Positions 3,537 to 16,826 of a DNA stretch of 64,000 nt are shown here, in pieces. A program made the position numbers and the translations under genes. Numbering within the stretch: position 1 is the first letter of the stretch; each line of letters begins with the position of its first letter. The notes beneath the pieces were generated by a model, which was not told where the DNA came from, ran no database searches, and saw only the letters and a list, made by a program, of their open reading frames with translations. The stretch comes from a virus, in the IMG/VR virus record IMGVR_UViG_3300044712_002690, positions 1-64,000 of that record; one strand, 5' to 3'.

Positions 3537-4991
3537 TTAGTAAGTCCATTCTACAAAGGTCACTGTACCTGTTATAGGGTATTCATTAGTGTAAATAGGA
3601 ACATCCCCACTAGTTGTTTTCGTTCTCCCATCTATTGGTGTTAATGTCGCTGTTGGAATATCAATATTATCCACACCATTAATATTTTTTATTAATGCGA
3701 TAATATCAGCAAATTCAACATTGCCTGAAATAAACGCAGTCATATAGTCTGCTATTGCTGTACTTCCTGCACTAATAACATCTGCTAAAATTGTACCTGT
3801 AGTGAGTTTTAACTTCATATAGATATCTATAATTACTTGTTCTTGTTCTCTTAACAAATAATCACGATTATCATACAAGTTAACTGTACTATTAAGATCA
3901 TCTTCAATATCATGGAGTAGTTTGTTATAATTATACCTTACTTCAAATGATTGTCCAGGTAGAAAATAACCAAGATTAGCTATTCCTGATGAAGTAAGAA
4001 CTAATTCATCATATCCTCTTGTTGATTTTCTTAACAAACCGTCATCTTTTTGTAATTCGTAGTAAGTTAAATCAACAACTGTTCCATTCTTAATAAATAA
4101 AGAAATTGAATCAACTGGTTGATTAGTAAAAATATATCCTGTACTTGTATATGCAATATCTTCCATATTGCCACCGAGTCCAGTAGATGTAATAACAAAG
4201 GTTTCTCTTGCTCCTTCTAAAGATTGTCCTCTGATATAAATATCTATACTTCCACCATAACCACTAGTTCTAAGCATTAGAGGATCATTAGATCCTACTA
4301 TATTTGCAGGTTTGGAATAATTTTCTACATATAACCTAATACCTTCTAATGAGTTTAAATTCCTTCCTTTGAATTTTTGTTTTACTTGATTTAATCTATC
4401 CGTTAGTGTTCCAACATCTTGTCCACCTGTAATTGGAGCACTATTTATACAACCTTCAATTCCAGTGATTGCGCCAAGTAATTCAGTAACTGTCTGAGCA
4501 CCTGTAGCCCCTGCTGTACCGGCGGTTGCAGCCACGACATTCACAGTTATTTCATATCTACGTGTAGTAGCATTGTAATATGCAGAAGCATCAGCAGAAG
4601 GTATTGTATAATACCCATCTACATAATATGTTTTCACTCCGTCAGCAGTTCTTCCACCTTTAGTATCGTCAATAACAACATCATTTACAGGTGAGTTATA
4701 AGTAAAAAATGTTAATTCACCGACTGAGTATGTAGCAGGTATTGTACCAACATCATTATTTCTACAAAATATATCTAAATCTTCAGTTAATAATTGATCT
4801 GAATAAATAAAAGGGGCTTGTAATTTATAGAGATATTCAAGAGCGTTCCATATATCAAGAAGTTGTCCTTCTATAGGAGCTTCAACGAACATATCCCTTT
4901 CAGGTGTGCCATCAGTAAAATCAAGATCTAACAGAGAGTTATAACTAGAAATTAATGATGTTCTTAAATCAGATGACGTTTTAAAATTCAT
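3537..4991 (-). CDS. Baseplate J-like wedge protein
   Basis: The 484-residue protein resembles the baseplate J family (P2 gpJ, T4 gp6). It has an N-terminal segment 'ERDMFVEAPIEGQLLDIWNA', a central linker and 'LNSLEGIRLYVENYSKPANIVG', the typical mid-region, followed by beta-rich C-terminal sections ending in 'FADIIALIKNINGVDNIDI'. J proteins form the wedge ring around the spike and hub. Its ATG overlaps the TGA of the upstream gene (ATGA), as is usual for a gp25-J pair, and AGGAG is present inside that upstream gene. It contains three [ST]S[ST]G tetrapeptides. Confidence 0.85.
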   Translation of the reverse strand: MNFKTSSDLRTSLISSYNSLLDLDFTDGTPERDMFVEAPIEGQLLDIWNALEYLYKLQAPFIYSDQLLTEDLDIFCRNNDVGTIPATYSVGELTFFTYNSPVNDVVIDDTKGGRTADGVKTYYVDGYYTIPSADASAYYNATTRRYEITVNVVAATAGTAGATGAQTVTELLGAITGIEGCINSAPITGGQDVGTLTDRLNQVKQKFKGRNLNSLEGIRLYVENYSKPANIVGSNDPLMLRTSGYGGSIDIYIRGQSLEGARETFVITSTGLGGNMEDIAYTSTGYIFTNQPVDSISLFIKNGTVVDLTYYELQKDDGLLRKSTRGYDELVLTSSGIANLGYFLPGQSFEVRYNYNKLLHDIEDDLNSTVNLYDNRDYLLREQEQVIIDIYMKLKLTTGTILADVISAGSTAIADYMTAFISGNVEFADIIALIKNINGVDNIDIPTATLTPIDGRTKTTSGDVPIYTNEYPITGTVTFVEWTY

Positions 4992-5431
4992 CCAACAATC
5001 TCCTGTGAGAATGTTTGTGCAGGAATTGTTTCTCCTGAAGCAACATTCAATTCGATTTGAAAATTAATTTTTGTTGGATCATATAGATTTTTAAATACAA
5101 TAAAAGAAAAATTTGTTATAATTTCTTCAAATGATAAATTATCCCTAGATTCTTGTAAAGTCACATAATACTTCAATGCAGATTCTAAGTTAGATTGAAG
5201 CATATCCATTGCTGCTGAAACAGATAAATTTCTATAAAGGCTTTTTCTATTAATCTCTGTTCCATACCTAGGGTTATAACGAGTAAACGTTGTTATATTA
5301 TCAACATTTTCATTCTCAGTCATAAGAAATTTAACAAAATCTCTTTTAGTTTTATTAGTACCAGAGATAGTTACTACTTGTTTATTTACAGTAGAAAAAT
5401 CTCCGTGTTCAAATCTTAATCCAATGGCCAT
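4988..5431 (-). CDS. Probable gp25-like baseplate/sheath-initiator protein
   Basis: The 147-residue protein lies directly upstream of the J-like gene with a 4-base overlap, the normal place for a gp25/W-like protein. The segment 'RDFVKFLMTENENVDN' followed by 'RYNPRYGTEI' and a helical 'MDMLQSNLESALKYYVTLQ' is compatible with the gp25 fold, in which a helix is followed by a conserved P-x-Y-G-x loop. The usual E-P-R core is not obvious, so the call leans on gene order. In T4 and P2 this protein nucleates the sheath on the baseplate. Confidence 0.5.
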   Translation of the reverse strand: MAIGLRFEHGDFSTVNKQVVTISGTNKTKRDFVKFLMTENENVDNITTFTRYNPRYGTEINRKSLYRNLSVSAAMDMLQSNLESALKYYVTLQESRDNLSFEEIITNFSFIVFKNLYDPTKINFQIELNVASGETIPAQTFSQEIVG

Positions 5432-6857: not shown

Positions 6858-8360
6858 TTATCCTGACATTTGTACTCCAGCTATTTTTAAGGAACCACCA
6901 TTATACCCAGCTAATATATTTAATGGCTGAGCAGGGGTTGCCCCTGGACCTGCATGTGAGTGCGAATCATGACCAGCTTCAATAAATGCTGCTGTTGCTT
7001 GTCCTGCAAATAATCCTTCTTGTGCTTGCCCTCCTGTTGCTACACTCCCCATTAAGTTAATGTTTTTTGCTGTAAGTGTTATTGTTGCGTCAGGAAAGCT
7101 TAAATCTAAACCATATTGATGTATGAGCATACTACGATTATTTTTATGTTTAAATAACATATCTCCTTCTGCATTCATTTCAATAAGTGATCCTGTACTT
7201 TGTTGTAGAACTACTCCATCTTGATCATTCATAGTAATAACATTATTGCCAATTCTACATCCAAATTCAGTAATACCTTCACCATCTTTACCAAAAGTAA
7301 CTTGATTATTTTGATTTCTATCAATTATAGATACTTTTGTATCATTTGCAGTTACATACATTCCTGCACTTTTAAAACTAACTTCAGTTGTATCTGTTCC
7401 TTCTTGTGTTAAATTAACTCTAAACTTAAAATAAGATTCGTTCTGTTCATTAACAATATAAAAATTACCCGTTTCATCTATTCCCATATGCATTTTAGAA
7501 GGTAATTTTACAAGCATATTAACAGCAGTGTTTAAAGCAGCTAAGAGTTTTTCTGCTTCTCCCTCTTGATTAAATACTTTAGAAGCAAAAGAAAATGTTC
7601 CTGTTGTAGGTGCTGTATCTAAATCAGTATCGGGATCTTTATCAACAGTAGGTGCTCCTGTTTCTGAATCATAAACAGTTCCTATACTAACTGTAAATTC
7701 TTTATGAGTAATAACTTCTTCTTCATCTCCCTCGCCTGTAATAGTACGCATTACAGAAGGTTGATTATTAGTCTCAGCATCATCTGCTAAAACTCTTTTA
7801 ACTCGTCCTGCATCTATTCTTACTCCATCAAGAGAAACATTTAAATCATTAGCATGACCTTCTATTGCTTGAGCGTATTCATTTAATCTAAGAAACATTC
7901 CTGATCCAGATTTAATATGAATACTACCATCACCTGCTAAAAATACTTCAGCTTGAGAAATACTTACAATTTGAACTTCTCCAGGATCAAGAAATCTTTG
8001 AAAAAATAAATTACCCTCTTTAGTATTACTACTATTAGAAGTTACATCTGATAAATCATTTGAAATAAAATATCCGATATGATAAAATTCTTTTTCTGTT
8101 AATTGGTCTCGATATAACAATGCAAATGAACGATTAGGTGTAGGCATCATTTTTATTCCTGCACCATCTAAAGTAAAGGGGTTACTTATAGCAATATCAG
8201 TGAATGTCTTACCATTAAGCATAGGTATAACACCACTAATTGTTTGTTTTTCAGGATTAACCGATGTAATATCTCCAAGAAATATATTTGTACTATTTGC
8301 TTGGTTTGCATACAACATAGGATTCTTAGGTTTAAATCCTGTGCCTCCTAGCATATTCAT
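6858..8360 (-). CDS. Central spike protein (gpV/gp5-C-like, OB fold plus beta-helix)
   Basis: The 500-residue protein opens with an OB-fold-like domain (about residues 25-110), followed by low-complexity acidic linkers. From about residue 330 a repetitive beta pattern ('NNQVTFG', 'GNNVITMNDQDGVVLQQ', 'GSLIEMNAEGDMLFKHKN') is typical of a trimeric beta-helix spike. Near the C-terminus 'AGHDSHSHAGPGA' matches the His-x-His and Gly-Pro-rich end of gpV-type spikes. The spike pierces the outer membrane when the tail contracts. Order hub-spike-gp25-J agrees. No lysozyme domain is present. Confidence 0.8.
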   Translation of the reverse strand: MNMLGGTGFKPKNPMLYANQANSTNIFLGDITSVNPEKQTISGVIPMLNGKTFTDIAISNPFTLDGAGIKMMPTPNRSFALLYRDQLTEKEFYHIGYFISNDLSDVTSNSSNTKEGNLFFQRFLDPGEVQIVSISQAEVFLAGDGSIHIKSGSGMFLRLNEYAQAIEGHANDLNVSLDGVRIDAGRVKRVLADDAETNNQPSVMRTITGEGDEEEVITHKEFTVSIGTVYDSETGAPTVDKDPDTDLDTAPTTGTFSFASKVFNQEGEAEKLLAALNTAVNMLVKLPSKMHMGIDETGNFYIVNEQNESYFKFRVNLTQEGTDTTEVSFKSAGMYVTANDTKVSIIDRNQNNQVTFGKDGEGITEFGCRIGNNVITMNDQDGVVLQQSTGSLIEMNAEGDMLFKHKNNRSMLIHQYGLDLSFPDATITLTAKNINLMGSVATGGQAQEGLFAGQATAAFIEAGHDSHSHAGPGATPAQPLNILAGYNGGSLKIAGVQMSG

Positions 8361-8376
8361 ATTATATTTCTCCTGT

Positions 8377-11300
8377 TTATACTAAAATAGTAGAACCTGG
8401 AACATGAGTAGCATCTATTCCTGTCTCTCTTGGAGAGACTCCGCCTACTCCAGATCTACCTGGAGCAACTCCAGAAATTCCAATTTGTTTTAAATAGAGT
8501 TTTGCTGTTCCAAATGTATTATTCTCTTTTTGTTGCTCTTGGTCTAAATCAATATCATCAAGAACACCCCATTTATTTCTTATTTGTACTGTACTATCAT
8601 ATGAAGAAAAAGATGGAATCGCAGTATATAATTCTTGTAATAATGATAAATTTCCTGTAGTATCGAATTGACTTGCAAAAGGTTTAGTGGGTCTAACTCT
8701 ACCTGCTTTAACACCTTTCTTAGCATCAAAGGTACCAGTAAATGCGTCACCATAAATTTGTTGACCTAAGAATTTATATTCTTCTAATGTACTTGTCTGT
8801 AATTCAGTAATTGTTTTCTTGTGCTTTTCATCATTAGATAATTTAATATTGATCTGTTCAATTTGATACTCGAGTTTCATATATTCTGCAGCATTTTTAG
8901 GATCTACATTCTCTTGGTTAAGACTTTCTTTCAATTCATCTCTTTGAATTTCAAGATCTATTTTCTGAGTTGCAAGATCAGATTTAGTTTTCTGGAAGTT
9001 AGTTACTTGTGTGTCTAGCTTAACTAATTCTTTTTCAATTTCTTGCAATTGAACAAATGAAGTATCTACAAGAACAAGCAATCCGTGTAATCTATCTACT
9101 TGATCTTTAGTTAATATATCTTGACCTAATTTACTTCCAAATCTTGGATCTTCAAGTAATTCAGAAGTTCCTATAATTGGACTTAATACATCTCTATCAT
9201 TACTTCCTCTAGCACTTTTGTCATAATTTATATGTCCGATAGGAGCATGTGCAACAAATAATCCACCACCTAACGATCCACCAAATGTAGATACTTGCAG
9301 TACTTGACCTAGTGTTTGTCCAGCTATCCCAGCGAGAGAAGGAATTAAACCTTTACTTGATCCACCAGCGTTAAAAAATTCTTGTACATTAATTGCATTT
9401 TTAACACCTTGTTTTTGTTTATAATTATCTTTATGATATGATATAGCTTTTTTATTAAAATATAAGTTAGTTCCTTGATCAGCAGCAGCGCCAGCGTTAC
9501 TTTCATTAGCAATTACTTTTCCGTCAGGTGAAATTAATTGTGATGAAACACTCGCATGAGCATCTGCTTCTGTATCTCCATGCATATTTTTTTCTGCTAC
9601 ATCGTCTAAATTTTTTGTAGTATAAGAATATGTAATTGAATTACGTCTAATATAAGAAAATTGACAATTACTTTGAAAAGGACTTTCAATACTATAATCA
9701 ATTGAATATGTTTGTAAAGAACCTATAGCTTGTTTATCTTCAATATAATATGGTCTATTTAACATAAGTTCTGGACGACCAATTATATCAACATGAATTT
9801 CAAATGCTTTAGAAACAATTCTGTTTAATAATATTTTAGAAAAAGCTGCTGCTTCTTCTTTAGTAGAAATAAATGGATTATGAATTGTTGGTCCTGGGTT
9901 AACTCCATATCTAGTTACAAAATCTGTTCTTGGATTATATTCACCTGCTAATGATAATTCTTTTAATACTCCTCTTGTTATAATAGTAGGAAGTTTATTT
10001 GCTTTAACAATATCCGTTAATTGTTTTCCTACTCCTCTAAACTCATCTCCTGTTTTTCCTGATTCTTGTAATGCTACTCCTTCATATAAATTCATCATCT
10101 GTTTAATTATTTGACCTGTAGCTGATCCAGCGCTTCTATCTTGATCCTCTGCAAATAACGAAGTTAATACAGTTGGATTAGAAGAACCACTTCTTGTAAT
10201 TGTTGTATATCTCTGTACAATATCACTAATTTTTTTAGACAATAAAGCATCAGCAGTAGTAATACCATGTTCATTTAAAAATGCAGAAGATGCAGGAGGA
10301 GGTATTTTTGTTGGATTAACAAATGCAGGATTACCTCCGCTCGTTAACCCTGTTCCTGATAGACCACTGGATAAAGTGGTAATTTTTCCTTTTTTATCTT
10401 TAGTAGAAAAATACTTTAACTCATTGTGTAAATCTGGTGCAATATTATAAAGAACAATCCACCCCTCAATAGTAGTTGATGCTAATTGTGGAATATTATT
10501 AACTACATATTGGCTTCTCTTTGATGCACTAATTTTTGTTAAATCTTGTTGAAGCTCGTCATATGTTTGTTGTAAAGAGCTGTGATAAAATACTAATCCT
10601 TTTTGCTTTGCTAATAGTTTTAAAGCTGCCGTACAACTATCCCATAATTGTTTTATTGTTGCTTGTCCTTTATTAGCATTTAGATTATCCAATAATAATG
10701 AATTAAGTTTTCCATCAAGAAATTTTTGTTTCTTTTTGTTAAGAGCTACAGTAATAGGATCAGAATCTTGTGAACCGAATAATTTATTTGGAAAACCATC
10801 TGCAACATATATTCCTATAGGAAACGATGCTTTATCTTTAGTAGAAGTAGGTGAAGAAATATCTATGTATGCTCCACCGTCACGATAAAAATTACTTAAT
10901 ATATTAGTTACTATACCATCTGTACCAGATATACTTCCAGTTACTACTGCACTTGTCTTGACAAGTTCAGGTTTTAATGTTTCTTGTACACGCATTGTGT
11001 CTTTATTTGTAATAAATAAAGGATAATTTGCTTTTAAATTAAAATAATATGCTTTGTCTTTTATATAAGCAATAGATTCTCCGCCTACTTCATTAACAAA
11101 TACTCTAAATAAGATATCTTCTTCTTGAGCTATTGGGTTTCTTGCTTCAATTTTATCAAAAAATTTAACAGGATGAAAATCATACATATTAGGCTCAATG
11201 AAAATATCCCCCATTGGAGAAGCATACACAACATATTCTGTATCATTTGTTATTTTTTCTATAGCATCATAAACAGTAGTACTATTTTCATCAAATAAAC

Positions 11301-13845
11301 TTAGTTGTGCAATTGAAATTTTTTCTTTTTCAACACCCCTAAATTTCCTTGGCCATATAAAAAATAGCCTTGGTCTAAAATAATTTCTTTGTGTGCCGGG
11401 TTCTTTTTCGTTATCTAGTGTGGTTAATTCAGTAGGACTACCGAAAACCATTTCTCTCAATTTTTCTAAAGGAGAAATAACTATTGAATCTAACAATTCT
11501 GGCTTGCCGGTTTTTGGATTTATAGATGCATTATATACATCTGAAACTCTATGAAAATTATTTATAAAATCGTATGTTAATGCAGGATGAATTCCACAAA
11601 CACCGAATCCTCTGTCTGCTGCCCATCCAGTGATTTCTTGTTTTTCACCAGTATCAAGTGTTTTAAAATTTCTTTTAGCTGCATCAAGAAGAGTAAAATT
11701 TTTTGACCAATACCTTACTGAACTATCATAAAAAGGTTTTAAATTATGTTCAGTTAAATCTTCAATATCAATTTGATTATATTGTAAATATAAATCTGTC
11801 CATGGGCTGAATCTAAAAGAATCTGGGTCTGCTAAATAGGCTTTATTTTTTACAAACCAGTTATTAAATTCAAATGATGAAACAAGTGTGGTCTTTGCTT
11901 CATCAGTTTCAGATATATTTGAAATTGGAACAAGTTCTACTCTTCTGTTTCTATAATCATGCCACTCAAGCCCTGGTTCATAAGATTTACCATTTACTGT
12001 GAATCCAGCGGGACAAAAACCATGATTAGCTCTATTTGTAAGATCGTAGTCGCTTAACGAAATTGGATCTTGTTTTTGTATGTCTCCTTGATCAGTGATT
12101 TTTATAGGAATAAAGTTTCTATTATTTTTATTAGGACCCGGTTCAATTGGTGATTGCTTACCTTTACCTTCTACTTCTGGATGTAATTGCTCTTCTTTTA
12201 TTCCTTGTTGTATTAACCACTTACGAACAGCTGTTGCTCTATCTCTAGATAAAATTTCATTATAAACTACACCACCATTTAAATCAGTATAACCAACAAG
12301 TTTAAAAACTGTTGTGCTCATACTTTTAAGATATGTAAGCATATTGTTTAATTCTCTTTCATTATGCTTAATATATCCTTGCGACCCTTTCAAGGGATCA
12401 CGTGAATCATAACTAAATAGGATTGGATATACTTTAGGCCCTGCTTTTTTAGTAAGTGCTGGTCCTTTACCTACACGTTGTAAAGGAAAATCTCTAATCA
12501 TTTGACCATCAGTATATAATTGTTCAGGATTAACATCAGTTTTAAACTCATGCGCAGTCCTAAAAACATTCATATACTTTTTTTCACGTGTATCTTTTTG
12601 TGAAACATTATATGGTATTTCGGGATTACCGTCTTGTGATTTAAATGTATTTGCGGGTGTGTAGTAAAAATGATAATTAACTATTTTCTCTACAACTTTA
12701 GTATCCCTACTAAAAAAAATAGTTTTCACTAATGTAGGAAAATCACCTCTAATTCCTTGATATACATAATGTTGAGCATTTGCAAAATTAGTTGCTCGTG
12801 ATTCCATAGCTCGTGCCCTAATAATTGAGCCTCTTTCTGTAAATTTTCTTCTTTTAAATATTTGTATAGGATCTCCTGCTTGTAGTGTTATTGTTTGCTC
12901 TGACCCGTAAATTTTACCTTCATTAAATCCTATTACCACACCCGTAAAACCAAAATACCAATAAGAAGAAAATCTTCCTTTGTAAAATACAAATACAGGA
13001 TCTCTAAAATCAAAAATAATTTCACCTATTTTTTTAGATAGCCCACTATGATGTTTAATATCATAAAGCATTTGTGTAACACCAAGTGTTTTATCTTGTT
13101 TTAAATTTTTAAAAGATTGGCTTATTGAATTAACTGTATTAATAACATCTTTACCAATAAAATCTTTACCAACTACTCCTAACAATCCTTGGCCAATATC
13201 AATAGTAGTTGCTCCTTTAATAGTTGCACTATCAGATGAAGTCATTTTCATAGAAGATGCAGGTTTTTGTAACCATTCATAATCATAAGTTTGTAATATA
13301 CTTTTATCTTCTCTCCAAGAACCTTGATTTTTTGGTCCAACTAAATCTGTAGGATTTACAGTGTATTTACCGCGAGGATTAGCTAATGTTATATCGCACA
13401 TTCCACCATTATCAAGCGAATACTGAGAACTAACTCGAATAACATCTTTAGTGACTTCAGCACCACAAATAAATACTCTACATTCAGGACTTAAATTAAT
13501 GAGTGTAGTACCGTCTGTTTTCTCTCTTTCAATATTTTCTACTGGATAACTAAGATCAAATGTACCAAAAACAGTACCTTCACTAGACTTTTCTTTTGTA
13601 GAAGAAGCTTGGGTGGGTTTTTCTTCTGCGGATAAATTTTTTATAAACTTTTCTCTGGGTCCTACATTTCCACCTGTATTTAAAAGAGGAGTAATATTAC
13701 TTCCTTGATCCTCATAAGGAGTAGTAACATTACTTCTTTGATTTTCATAAGGAGTAACATTACTTTCAGGTTTTGCTATTTCATAAGGAATAGAATATAA
13801 TCCTGTTTCATAACCAGGCTGTGGTATAGGAGGTTTAAAAGCCAT
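8377..13845 (-). CDS. Giant tail hub protein with an embedded OmpA-like peptidoglycan-binding domain
   Basis: At 1822 residues this is the largest protein of the window. Residues 10-70 carry a three-fold repeat of the type SNVTPYENQ. From about residue 120, 'FICGAEVTKDVIRVS' with 'GGMCDITLANPRGKYTV' resembles the first domain of gp27/gpD hub proteins. Residues about 470-585 form an OmpA_C-like domain with T520-D521, N529, L532-S533, R536-A537 and a closing N-R-N-F; the Asp and Arg that bind diaminopimelate in OmpA are present. A later hub-like section contains 'SPFQSNCQFSYIRRNSITY'. Residues about 1590-1680 are a coiled coil. The ATG overlaps the preceding stop (TAATG). It probably forms the central hub and may anchor to the cell wall during injection. 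Confidence 0.75.
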   Translation of the reverse strand: MAFKPPIPQPGYETGLYSIPYEIAKPESNVTPYENQRSNVTTPYEDQGSNITPLLNTGGNVGPREKFIKNLSAEEKPTQASSTKEKSSEGTVFGTFDLSYPVENIEREKTDGTTLINLSPECRVFICGAEVTKDVIRVSSQYSLDNGGMCDITLANPRGKYTVNPTDLVGPKNQGSWREDKSILQTYDYEWLQKPASSMKMTSSDSATIKGATTIDIGQGLLGVVGKDFIGKDVINTVNSISQSFKNLKQDKTLGVTQMLYDIKHHSGLSKKIGEIIFDFRDPVFVFYKGRFSSYWYFGFTGVVIGFNEGKIYGSEQTITLQAGDPIQIFKRRKFTERGSIIRARAMESRATNFANAQHYVYQGIRGDFPTLVKTIFFSRDTKVVEKIVNYHFYYTPANTFKSQDGNPEIPYNVSQKDTREKKYMNVFRTAHEFKTDVNPEQLYTDGQMIRDFPLQRVGKGPALTKKAGPKVYPILFSYDSRDPLKGSQGYIKHNERELNNMLTYLKSMSTTVFKLVGYTDLNGGVVYNEILSRDRATAVRKWLIQQGIKEEQLHPEVEGKGKQSPIEPGPNKNNRNFIPIKITDQGDIQKQDPISLSDYDLTNRANHGFCPAGFTVNGKSYEPGLEWHDYRNRRVELVPISNISETDEAKTTLVSSFEFNNWFVKNKAYLADPDSFRFSPWTDLYLQYNQIDIEDLTEHNLKPFYDSSVRYWSKNFTLLDAAKRNFKTLDTGEKQEITGWAADRGFGVCGIHPALTYDFINNFHRVSDVYNASINPKTGKPELLDSIVISPLEKLREMVFGSPTELTTLDNEKEPGTQRNYFRPRLFFIWPRKFRGVEKEKISIAQLSLFDENSTTVYDAIEKITNDTEYVVYASPMGDIFIEPNMYDFHPVKFFDKIEARNPIAQEEDILFRVFVNEVGGESIAYIKDKAYYFNLKANYPLFITNKDTMRVQETLKPELVKTSAVVTGSISGTDGIVTNILSNFYRDGGAYIDISSPTSTKDKASFPIGIYVADGFPNKLFGSQDSDPITVALNKKKQKFLDGKLNSLLLDNLNANKGQATIKQLWDSCTAALKLLAKQKGLVFYHSSLQQTYDELQQDLTKISASKRSQYVVNNIPQLASTTIEGWIVLYNIAPDLHNELKYFSTKDKKGKITTLSSGLSGTGLTSGGNPAFVNPTKIPPPASSAFLNEHGITTADALLSKKISDIVQRYTTITRSGSSNPTVLTSLFAEDQDRSAGSATGQIIKQMMNLYEGVALQESGKTGDEFRGVGKQLTDIVKANKLPTIITRGVLKELSLAGEYNPRTDFVTRYGVNPGPTIHNPFISTKEEAAAFSKILLNRIVSKAFEIHVDIIGRPELMLNRPYYIEDKQAIGSLQTYSIDYSIESPFQSNCQFSYIRRNSITYSYTTKNLDDVAEKNMHGDTEADAHASVSSQLISPDGKVIANESNAGAAADQGTNLYFNKKAISYHKDNYKQKQGVKNAINVQEFFNAGGSSKGLIPSLAGIAGQTLGQVLQVSTFGGSLGGGLFVAHAPIGHINYDKSARGSNDRDVLSPIIGTSELLEDPRFGSKLGQDILTKDQVDRLHGLLVLVDTSFVQLQEIEKELVKLDTQVTNFQKTKSDLATQKIDLEIQRDELKESLNQENVDPKNAAEYMKLEYQIEQINIKLSNDEKHKKTITELQTSTLEEYKFLGQQIYGDAFTGTFDAKKGVKAGRVRPTKPFASQFDTTGNLSLLQELYTAIPSFSSYDSTVQIRNKWGVLDDIDLDQEQQKENNTFGTAKLYLKQIGISGVAPGRSGVGGVSPRETGIDATHVPGSTILV

Positions 13846-14672
13846 TAAAATGCTCCTAAAATACCATTAACTATATTAGCTGTTCCAGTATACATTCCTG
13901 CTACTCTTTGTACAATAGTAACAGGTTTCATATTTTCTATAATATATGTAAAAGAATATTGTACTGTTTGTGCGTCTTCAGCAGATTCAGGAACACTAAA
14001 ATCCGTAAAATATCCCTCACAAATTACACCTGTGGGAAATTGCTTAGTGTACATTTTAATATATTTAACATTATAGTGTTCAAGACCTTGATCATCAGTA
14101 TAATATGGAGGTTGATCAGCGAGATCTTTTAATCTTTGTAAGAACTTTCTAGGCGAGTTATTTAATTTATTTCCATGACTACCTGCAGCTAATTTTTGTG
14201 CAAAAGGTTGAGAGGGATTCCACTTATTAATTTGAAGTTGTACACGTCTTTGATTAACTTCATTATTAACACCTGTCTTAAAAGATCCATAGGTTTGGTC
14301 AAGACTTTGTTTAAATCCTCTTGTATCCCCACGAAGTAAATTAAATGTATTTGATTGAACGCTATCACTATCTGATTGGATTTGCACCCAACCAACACTT
14401 CCATCACAAGTAAGCGTTTTAACATCTTGTCTATAATGGAAAGTTACAATAGATCCAGCAGTGTGTGTTCTATTTTGTATATACCTATCTTCTATTTGAA
14501 TTCGTGTAGGATTAATCCACATTTCATACCAAGAGGCAGCAGTTTGATATGTATCACCTGCAATTCCACCACTAACAATATTACCAAAAGGTTTAGCAAA
14601 TTTTCCTATAGACCCTTGGTTTTGTAATAAATTCGATGAAAATTGAAAAGGAGTTAATTTTAATCCTGCCAT
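13845..14672 (-). CDS. Tail/baseplate protein between tape measure and hub
   Basis: The 275-residue protein lies between the tape measure and the hub genes, where contractile phages encode tube-end or hub-adaptor proteins (P2 gpU/gpX or T4 gp48/gp53/gp54 equivalents). It is beta-rich, with 'YEMWINPTRIQIEDRYIQNRTHTAGSIV' cut into strands and a late segment 'GYFTDFSVPESAEDAQTVQY' reminiscent of tube-like folds. I do not see a LysM motif. The stop codon overlaps the hub start, so the two are translated together. Confidence 0.6.
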   Translation of the reverse strand: MAGLKLTPFQFSSNLLQNQGSIGKFAKPFGNIVSGGIAGDTYQTAASWYEMWINPTRIQIEDRYIQNRTHTAGSIVTFHYRQDVKTLTCDGSVGWVQIQSDSDSVQSNTFNLLRGDTRGFKQSLDQTYGSFKTGVNNEVNQRRVQLQINKWNPSQPFAQKLAAGSHGNKLNNSPRKFLQRLKDLADQPPYYTDDQGLEHYNVKYIKMYTKQFPTGVICEGYFTDFSVPESAEDAQTVQYSFTYIIENMKPVTIVQRVAGMYTGTANIVNGILGAF

Positions 14673-14681
14673 ACTCCTACC

Positions 14682-16826
14682 TTATCCTATACCATCTCTA
14701 GATTTAGCAATTGCATCTTCAATACCCCGTAACACACCGCTTTCTCCTATTACACCCCCATAAAAATTATTTACAACATGAATAGTATTAGGATTATCTA
14801 TGCTTGTCTGCTCTTGTCCTCTACCTCTAGGTCCTCTTCCTTGCCCTCTGCTTGGCCGCATTCTTCCTCGAGGAGACCTGTCACTTTCTGCAGCAATTGG
14901 TTCATCAGCAGAAAATCCTAATTTTTCTTCAGCTAATCTTTGTGCATGTGAAGGGTCTAAAACACTAAATGCTCCTCCTACTGTGCTTGCTGCTGCTTTT
15001 ATATAACCTCTTGTTCTTGCTTGCCCTTGTCTATCCATTTCTTCTGCTATTTTCCAACCTTTCCTACCACCTGTTATATAAAGACCTATTTGTCTTGGTA
15101 TCATAAATAAATTTTGTATAATGGATAGTAACAATCCTGTTACTGCAAACATTAATTTTTGTTTTACTCCCTCAAAGTCTGCTAATTTTCCTAATAAATT
15201 TCTATTACTTAAATTTGCTTGAATAAGTTTTTTAGCATTCTCATTTTCTGCATTTTTCAACTGATCTATAGGTGTCGAAAAAAGAAGCTTCATTCCTGCT
15301 TCATCTAGATTAATAATACCTGATTTTCTAAGCAGTTCAGCATACATTCCACGGTTTTCAGGAGCTACTTTTTCAAGAAGTTCTTTAGCTACACGCAGAG
15401 TTGAAAGTGTTGCTTCATCACCTGATAAGTTTTGTCCTGATTCAAGTGTTCCAGCAGAAGTTTTACTCCATTTTAGTGGTCCACCATAAGTCATCATATC
15501 AAATTGTTCACCTGGTGTTCCTTTCATTCCTGCCATTTGTGCATAAAATAATTTCATAGCTGGATCCATTCTGCTTCTCATACTAAGCATATTTTCTGTA
15601 GCTGCACCTAATTGTGAGCGAGTAACACCTAATTGTTGTAAAACCCCTCTTTCTTTATATAATTTAACTGCTGTTGTTAATGTACTAACAACAATTTTTT
15701 CATCAACATTAATAAAACGTAATTTTTCAGAAATAGCAGACGATTGATCTAGCAAATAGTCTAATGGAATACCAGCATCTTTTGCTTGATTTTTAAATAT
15801 TGCAGATAACCTATTAATATGCTCCCAACTTTTTTCAATCGTACCAGAAGAATTGATCATTCTATCTGTTACATTTTTTGCTAGTTCATCGCCATATAAC
15901 TTACTGTTAGCTGCAAACTCTTGTATTTCTTTCAACAGCCCAGCAGAAGAGGTACTTGTTATACCTAAACCGACAGTACTTTGTGAATATTTTTCTGCTT
16001 CCTCAAAAGTTAAATTGGGCTGATTAATACTGATTTTGTCATTTCTTCCTGTTCTTGCGCTTAATCTTGTATTCATAACACTTTGTCGCATACCAATTTG
16101 TGTTTGAAACAATATAGCATCAACAACAGCTTCTATTATACTTCCTCCCAACATGGAACCTACTTTTGCAGCACGTGCCATTTTAGGATGAGATTTTTGA
16201 AATTTTTCAGATTGTGCTAAAACTCCTAGTGCTTGTGTAGGCATAGTTCCTATGCCCTTCATTACACCGGCTAAGGATCCCCCTGCCATTTTATTGAATG
16301 CAGAAATAGCTGTTTGTAGTTTAAGCTCTTGCATTTTAAGTTTTTGTTGTTTTTCTAATTGTTTAGTTTGATCTTGTTTTTGTTTAGATTGTTTTTCTTC
16401 TTCTTTACTAATAGCAGCAATAGCTGATTGAAAGGCTTTAATATTTTTTTGTCTTTTTTCTTCCGCTTTAGATAATTTTGTAGCTGAATCAACTTGTTTT
16501 TCAGTTAATTTTAATGCTTGCTGTATAAATTTTATAGATTCTTTTAATGACATATTAGTTTTCTGTTGTATAGATTGAATCGTTATACTAGCAGCAGGTA
16601 ATTGATCTAATGTAGTACTTAAATCTTTATAGATTGTTTTTTGTTGTTCCAATGCAGTTGCAATATTTTCATTAGCTTCTAAAAATTTTTTAGACTCTTC
16701 ATTAGTTAATTTATACAATTGAAGAATAGCATCTAGTGAGGCTTGTTCAGACTGCATTGTGTCGCCAGTAGATTTAGTCAGTTTATTGACATCCATCATT
16801 ATATCATCTAATTTAGGATCAGGCAT
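14682..16826 (-). CDS. Tail tape measure protein
   Basis: The 714-residue protein has a long helical N-terminal half (residues 1-190) full of Lys, Glu, Gln and Ser, a central Ala/Gly-rich section and a hydrophobic membrane-capable segment near residues 560-590 ('LMFAVTGLLLSIIQNLFMI'). It follows the frameshifted chaperone pair, as expected. By the usual 0.15 nm per residue rule the tail would be about 107 nm. Near the C-terminus (about residues 648-672) is an Arg/Gly/Pro-rich tract encoded by locally GC-rich DNA. No peptidase or transglycosylase motif was recognised. Confidence 0.85.
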   Translation of the reverse strand: MPDPKLDDIMMDVNKLTKSTGDTMQSEQASLDAILQLYKLTNEESKKFLEANENIATALEQQKTIYKDLSTTLDQLPAASITIQSIQQKTNMSLKESIKFIQQALKLTEKQVDSATKLSKAEEKRQKNIKAFQSAIAAISKEEEKQSKQKQDQTKQLEKQQKLKMQELKLQTAISAFNKMAGGSLAGVMKGIGTMPTQALGVLAQSEKFQKSHPKMARAAKVGSMLGGSIIEAVVDAILFQTQIGMRQSVMNTRLSARTGRNDKISINQPNLTFEEAEKYSQSTVGLGITSTSSAGLLKEIQEFAANSKLYGDELAKNVTDRMINSSGTIEKSWEHINRLSAIFKNQAKDAGIPLDYLLDQSSAISEKLRFINVDEKIVVSTLTTAVKLYKERGVLQQLGVTRSQLGAATENMLSMRSRMDPAMKLFYAQMAGMKGTPGEQFDMMTYGGPLKWSKTSAGTLESGQNLSGDEATLSTLRVAKELLEKVAPENRGMYAELLRKSGIINLDEAGMKLLFSTPIDQLKNAENENAKKLIQANLSNRNLLGKLADFEGVKQKLMFAVTGLLLSIIQNLFMIPRQIGLYITGGRKGWKIAEEMDRQGQARTRGYIKAAASTVGGAFSVLDPSHAQRLAEEKLGFSADEPIAAESDRSPRGRMRPSRGQGRGPRGRGQEQTSIDNPNTIHVVNNFYGGVIGESGVLRGIEDAIAKSRDGIG

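What the first reader, a model, noticed from the sequence alone, without database searches (positions are those of the whole stretch)
12090..12435. OmpA-like domain inside the tail hub
The hub contains a full OmpA_C domain with the two residues that bind diaminopimelate (D521, R536) and the N-R end motif. Tail hubs usually carry a lysozyme or a LysM to handle peptidoglycan. A non-catalytic binder here would anchor the tube to the cell wall during injection. I know of no standard hub with this domain.
Basis: partly seen in the sequence, partly recalled or inferred. Interest (0 to 1): 0.7.

Follow-up and report, generated by a model that had tools for sequence, protein, structure and literature searches.

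The report
Cell-wall-binding domain in phage tail hub
A large uncultivated contractile-tailed phage carries, inside the protein at the core of its tail tip, a cell-wall-binding domain like those bacteria use to tether outer-membrane and secretion-machine proteins, which suggests, untested, that the tail tip grips the cell wall during DNA injection.

Summary
Residues 496-576 of the 1822-aa protein (window 8377-13845, minus) match Pfam OmpA (43.3 bits; cut-off 27.2; E=4.9e-11). D521, N529 and R536 sit exactly where the DAP-binding OmpA motif requires. The canonical end motif NRRVEL lies at residue 633, outside the given coordinates; a second candidate (NNRN) is at 574. The gene is the hub by position: tape measure, tube initiator, this gene, then gp25-like sheath initiator and Baseplate_J. 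That order is kept in related IMG/VR phages. Sequence comparison does not prove the hub fold, and both AlphaFold runs failed.

Against the nearest relative, the hub aligns at 63-461 and 660-1774; OmpA fills the one non-homologous gap, 462-659. None of seven related viruses has an OmpA domain in its record. Base composition matches the rest of the gene, so a chimera is unlikely. No peptidoglycan hydrolase was recognised in the tail genes scanned; a lysozyme-like gene lies near 114 kb.

Precedent: an IMG/VR survey found tape measure proteins with OmpA domains (seven loci), so tails have taken up this domain at least twice.

Most likely: a trimeric, non-catalytic peptidoglycan anchor on the hub. 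Binding and position on the hub are inferred, not shown. New variant of a known kind.

The parts
8377..13845 (-). hub candidate, 1822 aa, containing the OmpA domain
   Evidence: position between tube initiator and sheath initiator/Baseplate_J, conserved in related phages
12118..12360 (-). OmpA domain core (residues 496-576)
   Evidence: Pfam PF00691 E=4.9e-11; 46.4 bits in genome scan
12283..12285 (-). D521 codon, DAP-binding aspartate of the GYTD motif
   Evidence: equivalent of A. baumannii D271 (PMC6572160)
12238..12240 (-). R536 codon, DAP-binding arginine of LSxxRA
   Evidence: equivalent of A. baumannii R286
11932..11949 (-).
   Evidence: aligned with NRRVE/NRRIE of bacterial OmpA domains
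11869..12462 (-). non-homologous segment (residues 462-659) that holds the whole OmpA module
   Evidence: blastp against the nearest relative aligns 63-461 and 660-1774 only; segment length variable in the family
13845..14672 (-). tail tube initiator candidate, 275 aa
   Evidence: weak Pfam Phage_tail_tube_init, E=7e-4, below cut-off; conserved next to hub
14682..16826 (-). tape measure protein candidate, 714 aa
   Evidence: position and length variation in relatives; no family match
6858..8360 (-). 500-aa protein following the hub, spike or hub-associated candidate
   Evidence: conserved in all seven IMG/VR relatives; no family match
4988..5431 (-). sheath initiator (gp25-like)
   Evidence: Pfam Sheath_initiator E=4.4e-5, below curated cut-off
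3537..4991 (-). Baseplate_J-like wedge protein
   Evidence: Pfam Baseplate_J E=3e-4, just below cut-off; relative in Rctr197k over cut-off

Best explanation
The protein is the baseplate hub of a contractile-tailed phage in which a variable segment has been replaced by an OmpA/Pal/MotB-type peptidoglycan-binding domain. If hubs are trimeric here as in T4, three such domains surround the tube exit. After sheath contraction drives the tube through the outer membrane, the domains bind diaminopimelate-containing stem peptides non-covalently and hold the hub at the cell wall while the spike and tape measure leave and DNA passes. They would act as a clamp or positioning device, with hydrolysis, if any, done by another protein. 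Shown: domain, binding residues, gene order, lineage-specific insertion. Inferred: hub fold, trimer, surface position, binding, timing.
For: OmpA match well over cut-off with an intact D/N/R motif; D271/R286 of OmpA bind DAP (PMC6572160). Hub gene order conserved with seven related viruses and, in part, Rctr197k. The insertion sits in the one segment that is not homologous to the nearest relative and is variable across the family, which fits a peripheral loop. Composition equals the rest of the gene. No Phage_lysozyme, CHAP, M23, Amidase_2, NlpC/P60 or LysM match in the genome; the SLT-type lysozyme is at 114 kb, beside a 3D-domain-like protein, away from the tail module. The same domain occurs in tape measure proteins of other viral contigs. 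The T6SS uses this fold to anchor a contractile machine to the wall.
Against: Only one hub with the domain was found, so purifying selection on the binding site cannot be measured. Relatives lack it. Hub fold was not demonstrated: AlphaFold models are unusable, and hhalign against T4 gp27, Mu gp44 and P2 gpD gave no more than unrelated controls. The host and its peptidoglycan chemistry are unknown. A peptidoglycan hydrolase of unrecognised family in the tail cannot be excluded.
Confidence: 0.5

Rival explanations
1. The domain is a structural decoration: an OmpA fold captured in a permissive hub loop that stabilises the baseplate or contacts a neighbouring protein, with the binding motif retained by chance or for fold stability.
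For: The site tolerates very different inserts in the family (102 to 308 residues between two conserved positions) and relatives lack OmpA altogether.
Against: The ligand-binding D, N and R, not only the hydrophobic core, are all kept, and base composition suggests the domain is not a very recent arrival.
Confidence: 0.25
2. The protein is a baseplate or tail protein other than the central hub, so the domain is displayed elsewhere on the tail tip.
For: No sequence link to known hubs; the protein is far larger than T4 gp27 or Mu gp44.
Against: Its slot between tube initiator and gp25/J is the hub slot of myoviruses and is kept in the relatives; the shorter homologue Rctr197k_073 (782 aa) keeps the same four conserved blocks in order.
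Confidence: 0.15
3. The domain binds peptidoglycan, but for another purpose: capture of wall fragments in the environment, wall attachment before contraction, or a role of free hub protein in the periplasm late in infection.
For: The binding motif alone does not fix the stage at which it acts; large phages also encode free-standing OmpA proteins (phage G gp249/gp250).
Against: It is fused to a tail assembly protein rather than to an exported one, and a hub would reach the periplasm only on injection (inference).
Confidence: 0.08
4. Metagenome chimera joining a phage gene and a bacterial ompA.
For: The domain is unique to this contig among relatives.
Against: One uninterrupted frame with homologous hub sequence on both sides and uniform GC and third-position GC.
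Confidence: 0.02

Closest known systems
OmpA/Pal/MotB peptidoglycan-binding domain (Pfam PF00691)
   Same: Sequence family, D521/N529/R536 motif, closest solved relatives 5wtp/5wtl, Pal and YiaD.
   Different: Embedded in the middle of a phage structural protein; about 57 extra residues before the canonical NRRVEL end motif.
TagL (T6SS accessory protein with OmpA-like domain, PMC8253398)
   Same: Uses the same fold to tie a contractile tail-like machine to the cell wall.
   Different: TagL belongs to the membrane complex of the firing cell; here the domain is in the tail and would act on the target cell.
T4 gp27/gp5 hub with lysozyme domain
   Same: Cell-wall-handling module carried at the central tail tip (established knowledge).
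   Different: T4 uses a catalytic lysozyme; this is a non-catalytic binder. No sequence similarity detected to gp27.
OmpA-bearing tape measure proteins in IMG/VR (L096, L045, L059 and others)
   Same: OmpA domain fused into a phage tail protein expected to meet the cell wall.
   Different: Tape measure, not hub, with a different OmpA sequence near the C-terminus; no hub-family match.
Virus Rctr197k gene 073
   Same: Homologous hub-slot protein with the four conserved blocks.
   Different: 782 aa, no OmpA domain.

Membership tests
OmpA C-terminal domain (PF00691) | profile match over curated cut-off | tested here: met
   43.3 bits against 27.2
OmpA C-terminal domain (PF00691) | DAP-binding Asp and Arg in TD...LSxxRA | tested here: met
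   D521, R536, 15 apart; all invariant columns of a small OmpA alignment kept
OmpA C-terminal domain (PF00691) | terminal NRRVE strand in the usual place | tested here: inconclusive
   NNRN at 574 and NRRVEL at 633; the fold was not modelled
OmpA C-terminal domain (PF00691) | binds peptidoglycan | not testable with these tools
   needs pull-down or calorimetry
contractile-tail baseplate hub (gp27 type) | gene position between tape measure/tube initiator and sheath initiator/J | tested here: met
contractile-tail baseplate hub (gp27 type) | sequence or profile similarity to a known hub | tested here: inconclusive
   no match to Pfam, PHROGs or PDB hubs; hhalign against three single hubs equals controls; shallow profile, so a miss is weak evidence
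contractile-tail baseplate hub (gp27 type) | two tube-like domains, trimer | tested here: inconclusive
   AlphaFold pLDDT 35 and 37
tail-associated lysozyme hub | recognisable peptidoglycan hydrolase domain in the hub | tested here: not met
   no such Pfam match in the hub or neighbours; tested hydrolase families absent from the tail region

The most novel reading that the evidence does not exclude
Some phage tails carry a non-catalytic peptidoglycan clamp of OmpA type at the tip, gained independently in hubs and tape measure proteins, which holds the channel at the wall during DNA entry in place of, or alongside, a tail lysozyme.
Probability: 0.35. Interest if true: 0.65.

Novelty: new variant of a known kind. 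Interest (0 to 1): 0.5.

Why it matters
Phage tail tips are usually described as cutting the cell wall. A binder with an intact DAP site in the hub slot, plus an independent case in tape measure proteins, raises the possibility that some tails hold on to the wall. It is a small soluble domain with two known critical residues, so the idea can be tested directly, and it would link phage injection to the way bacteria anchor the T6SS, flagellar motor and outer membrane.

Tried and rejected
AlphaFold of hub residues 86-1010 and of a relative's whole hub: pLDDT 35 and 37, discarded. Hub profile against PDB: only coiled-coil noise. hhalign to T4 gp27, Mu gp44, P2 gpD: no better than controls. tblastn of the hub against GenBank phages: none. 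Profile scan of bacterial genomes for the hub: none. OmpA alignment as a collection query: too little conserved, replaced by a DNA pattern; a narrower pattern found nothing. GenBank 'phage' OmpA hits H32 and H40 sit among Pseudomonas chromosomal genes, and the Acinetobacter 'phage MD-2021a' contigs look bacterial; all rejected as phage precedents. Chimera rejected on frame continuity and composition.

Full report
Setting. The window is the first 64 kb of a 178,984-bp IMG/VR virus record. The record carries 22 tRNA genes, a major head protein and a portal protein matching PHROGs; among GenBank phages the portal is closest to Virus Rctr197k and Bacillus phage G. Weak but correctly placed matches to a sheath initiator (gp25-like) and Baseplate_J make it a contractile-tailed phage.

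The observation. The 1822-aa protein at 8377-13845 (minus) matches Pfam OmpA at residues 496-576 with E=4.9e-11 and 43.3 bits against a cut-off of 27.2. phmmer against solved structures returns OmpA-family C-terminal domains (5wtp, 5wtl), Pal, YiaD and others. In an alignment with five other OmpA domains every invariant column is kept. The back-translated motif is found once in the window and never in 100 shuffles.

Domain end. NNRN stands at 574-577, but the canonical NRRVEL is at 633-638, and mafft aligns the latter with the NRRVE of bacterial OmpAs, leaving about 57 residues as an insertion. The module therefore probably reaches residue 643, beyond the given coordinates.

Is it the hub? Upstream lie a tail assembly chaperone candidate (weak PHROG matches), a tape measure candidate and a tube initiator candidate (weak Pfam match); downstream lie a 500-aa protein, three small proteins, the gp25-like sheath initiator and Baseplate_J. 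tblastn of these genes shows the same order in seven related viruses from IMG/VR, where contig length allows, and Rctr197k has a shorter 782-aa homologue in the same slot with the same four conserved blocks. This is the hub slot of contractile tails (established knowledge of Mu, P2 and PBSX-type tails). Direct evidence of the hub fold is missing: Pfam, PHROGs and PDB searches give nothing useful outside the OmpA part, hhalign to T4 gp27, Mu gp44 and P2 gpD equals controls, and both AlphaFold jobs failed, probably for want of alignment depth.

How the domain got there. The nearest relative (L002; 50% and 39% identity over the two blocks) aligns to residues 63-461 and 660-1774 and to nothing in between. 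The OmpA module lies wholly in that gap. Across eight sequences the stretch between two conserved positions varies from 102 to 308 residues. No relative has an OmpA match anywhere in its available record or in the four hub proteins scanned. GC of the module matches the rest of the gene, and the frame is continuous, so neither an assembly chimera nor a very recent transfer is likely.

Peptidoglycan handling elsewhere. Searches of the whole record for Phage_lysozyme, CHAP, Peptidase_M23, Amidase_2, NlpC/P60 and LysM were negative. One SLT-type lysozyme lies at 114.2-114.5 kb, in a 169-aa protein with an N-terminal hydrophobic segment, next to a protein that looks like a 3D-domain enzyme by eye; this resembles a lysis cassette rather than a tail part. 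An unrecognised tail hydrolase is not excluded.

Precedents. Papers searched for OmpA with baseplate, hub, tape measure or tail terms gave no phage hub or tape measure with the domain, and a review of 224 jumbo phages does not mention OmpA (PMC7824862). tblastn of the domain in GenBank phages found no hub: the hits I opened are free-standing or contaminating bacterial genes, and some unannotated records were not opened. Forty-four encode one family of about 600 aa with a C-terminal OmpA domain; seven encode one group that includes tape measure proteins. The best of these, L096, is 2380 aa, matches tape measure PHROGs at 6e-129, PhageMin_Tail at 5e-30 and OmpA at 3e-17 over nearly the full profile. 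None matches the hub profile. OmpA domains have therefore entered phage tail proteins at least twice.

Mechanism. TagL anchors the T6SS to the wall with this fold (PMC8253398). By analogy I propose that the hub, once driven through the outer membrane, binds DAP stem peptides through its OmpA domains and is held at the wall while the genome passes. The domain, its binding residues, the gene order and the lineage-specific insertion are shown; trimer, exposure, binding and timing are inferred. The chief rival is a decorative insert without a binding role.

Verdict. A real and, as far as these searches reach, undescribed domain combination; a new variant of tail-tip cell-wall modules, with a testable mechanism.

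Noticed in passing
L096:1614-8756 (-); also L042, L045, L059, L078, L086, L094: Phage tape measure proteins with an OmpA domain near the C-terminus, an independent case of OmpA in a phage tail protein.
   Followed up: partly
L038, L043, L048, L061, L114 and about 39 more IMG/VR loci: A recurrent family of about 600 aa with a C-terminal OmpA domain, common on large viral contigs; the two read in full begin with a hydrophobic segment. Function and true viral origin not examined.
   Followed up: no
G000 64001-122000 (loci L023-L025): Record encodes a tubulin/FtsZ-family protein, a Ro60/TROVE protein, QueC, QueF, GTP cyclohydrolase I and PTPS (queuosine-type pathway), and DNA polymerase A.
   Followed up: no
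G000 121001-178984 (loci L026-L028): RtcB, a RlaP-like RNA-repair polymerase, two COOH-NH2 ligases and R2K ATP-grasp proteins, suggesting RNA repair and peptide modification genes.
   Followed up: no
G000 113700-114658 (L025:11700-12658, -): SLT-type lysozyme with N-terminal hydrophobic segment beside a 3D-domain-like protein, a likely lysis cassette.
   Followed up: partly
OQ572403 (L033), OQ658364 (L034), CAKLQH/CAKLQF contigs: GenBank 'phage' records whose OmpA hits lie among bacterial chromosomal genes; they look like host sequence.
   Followed up: partly
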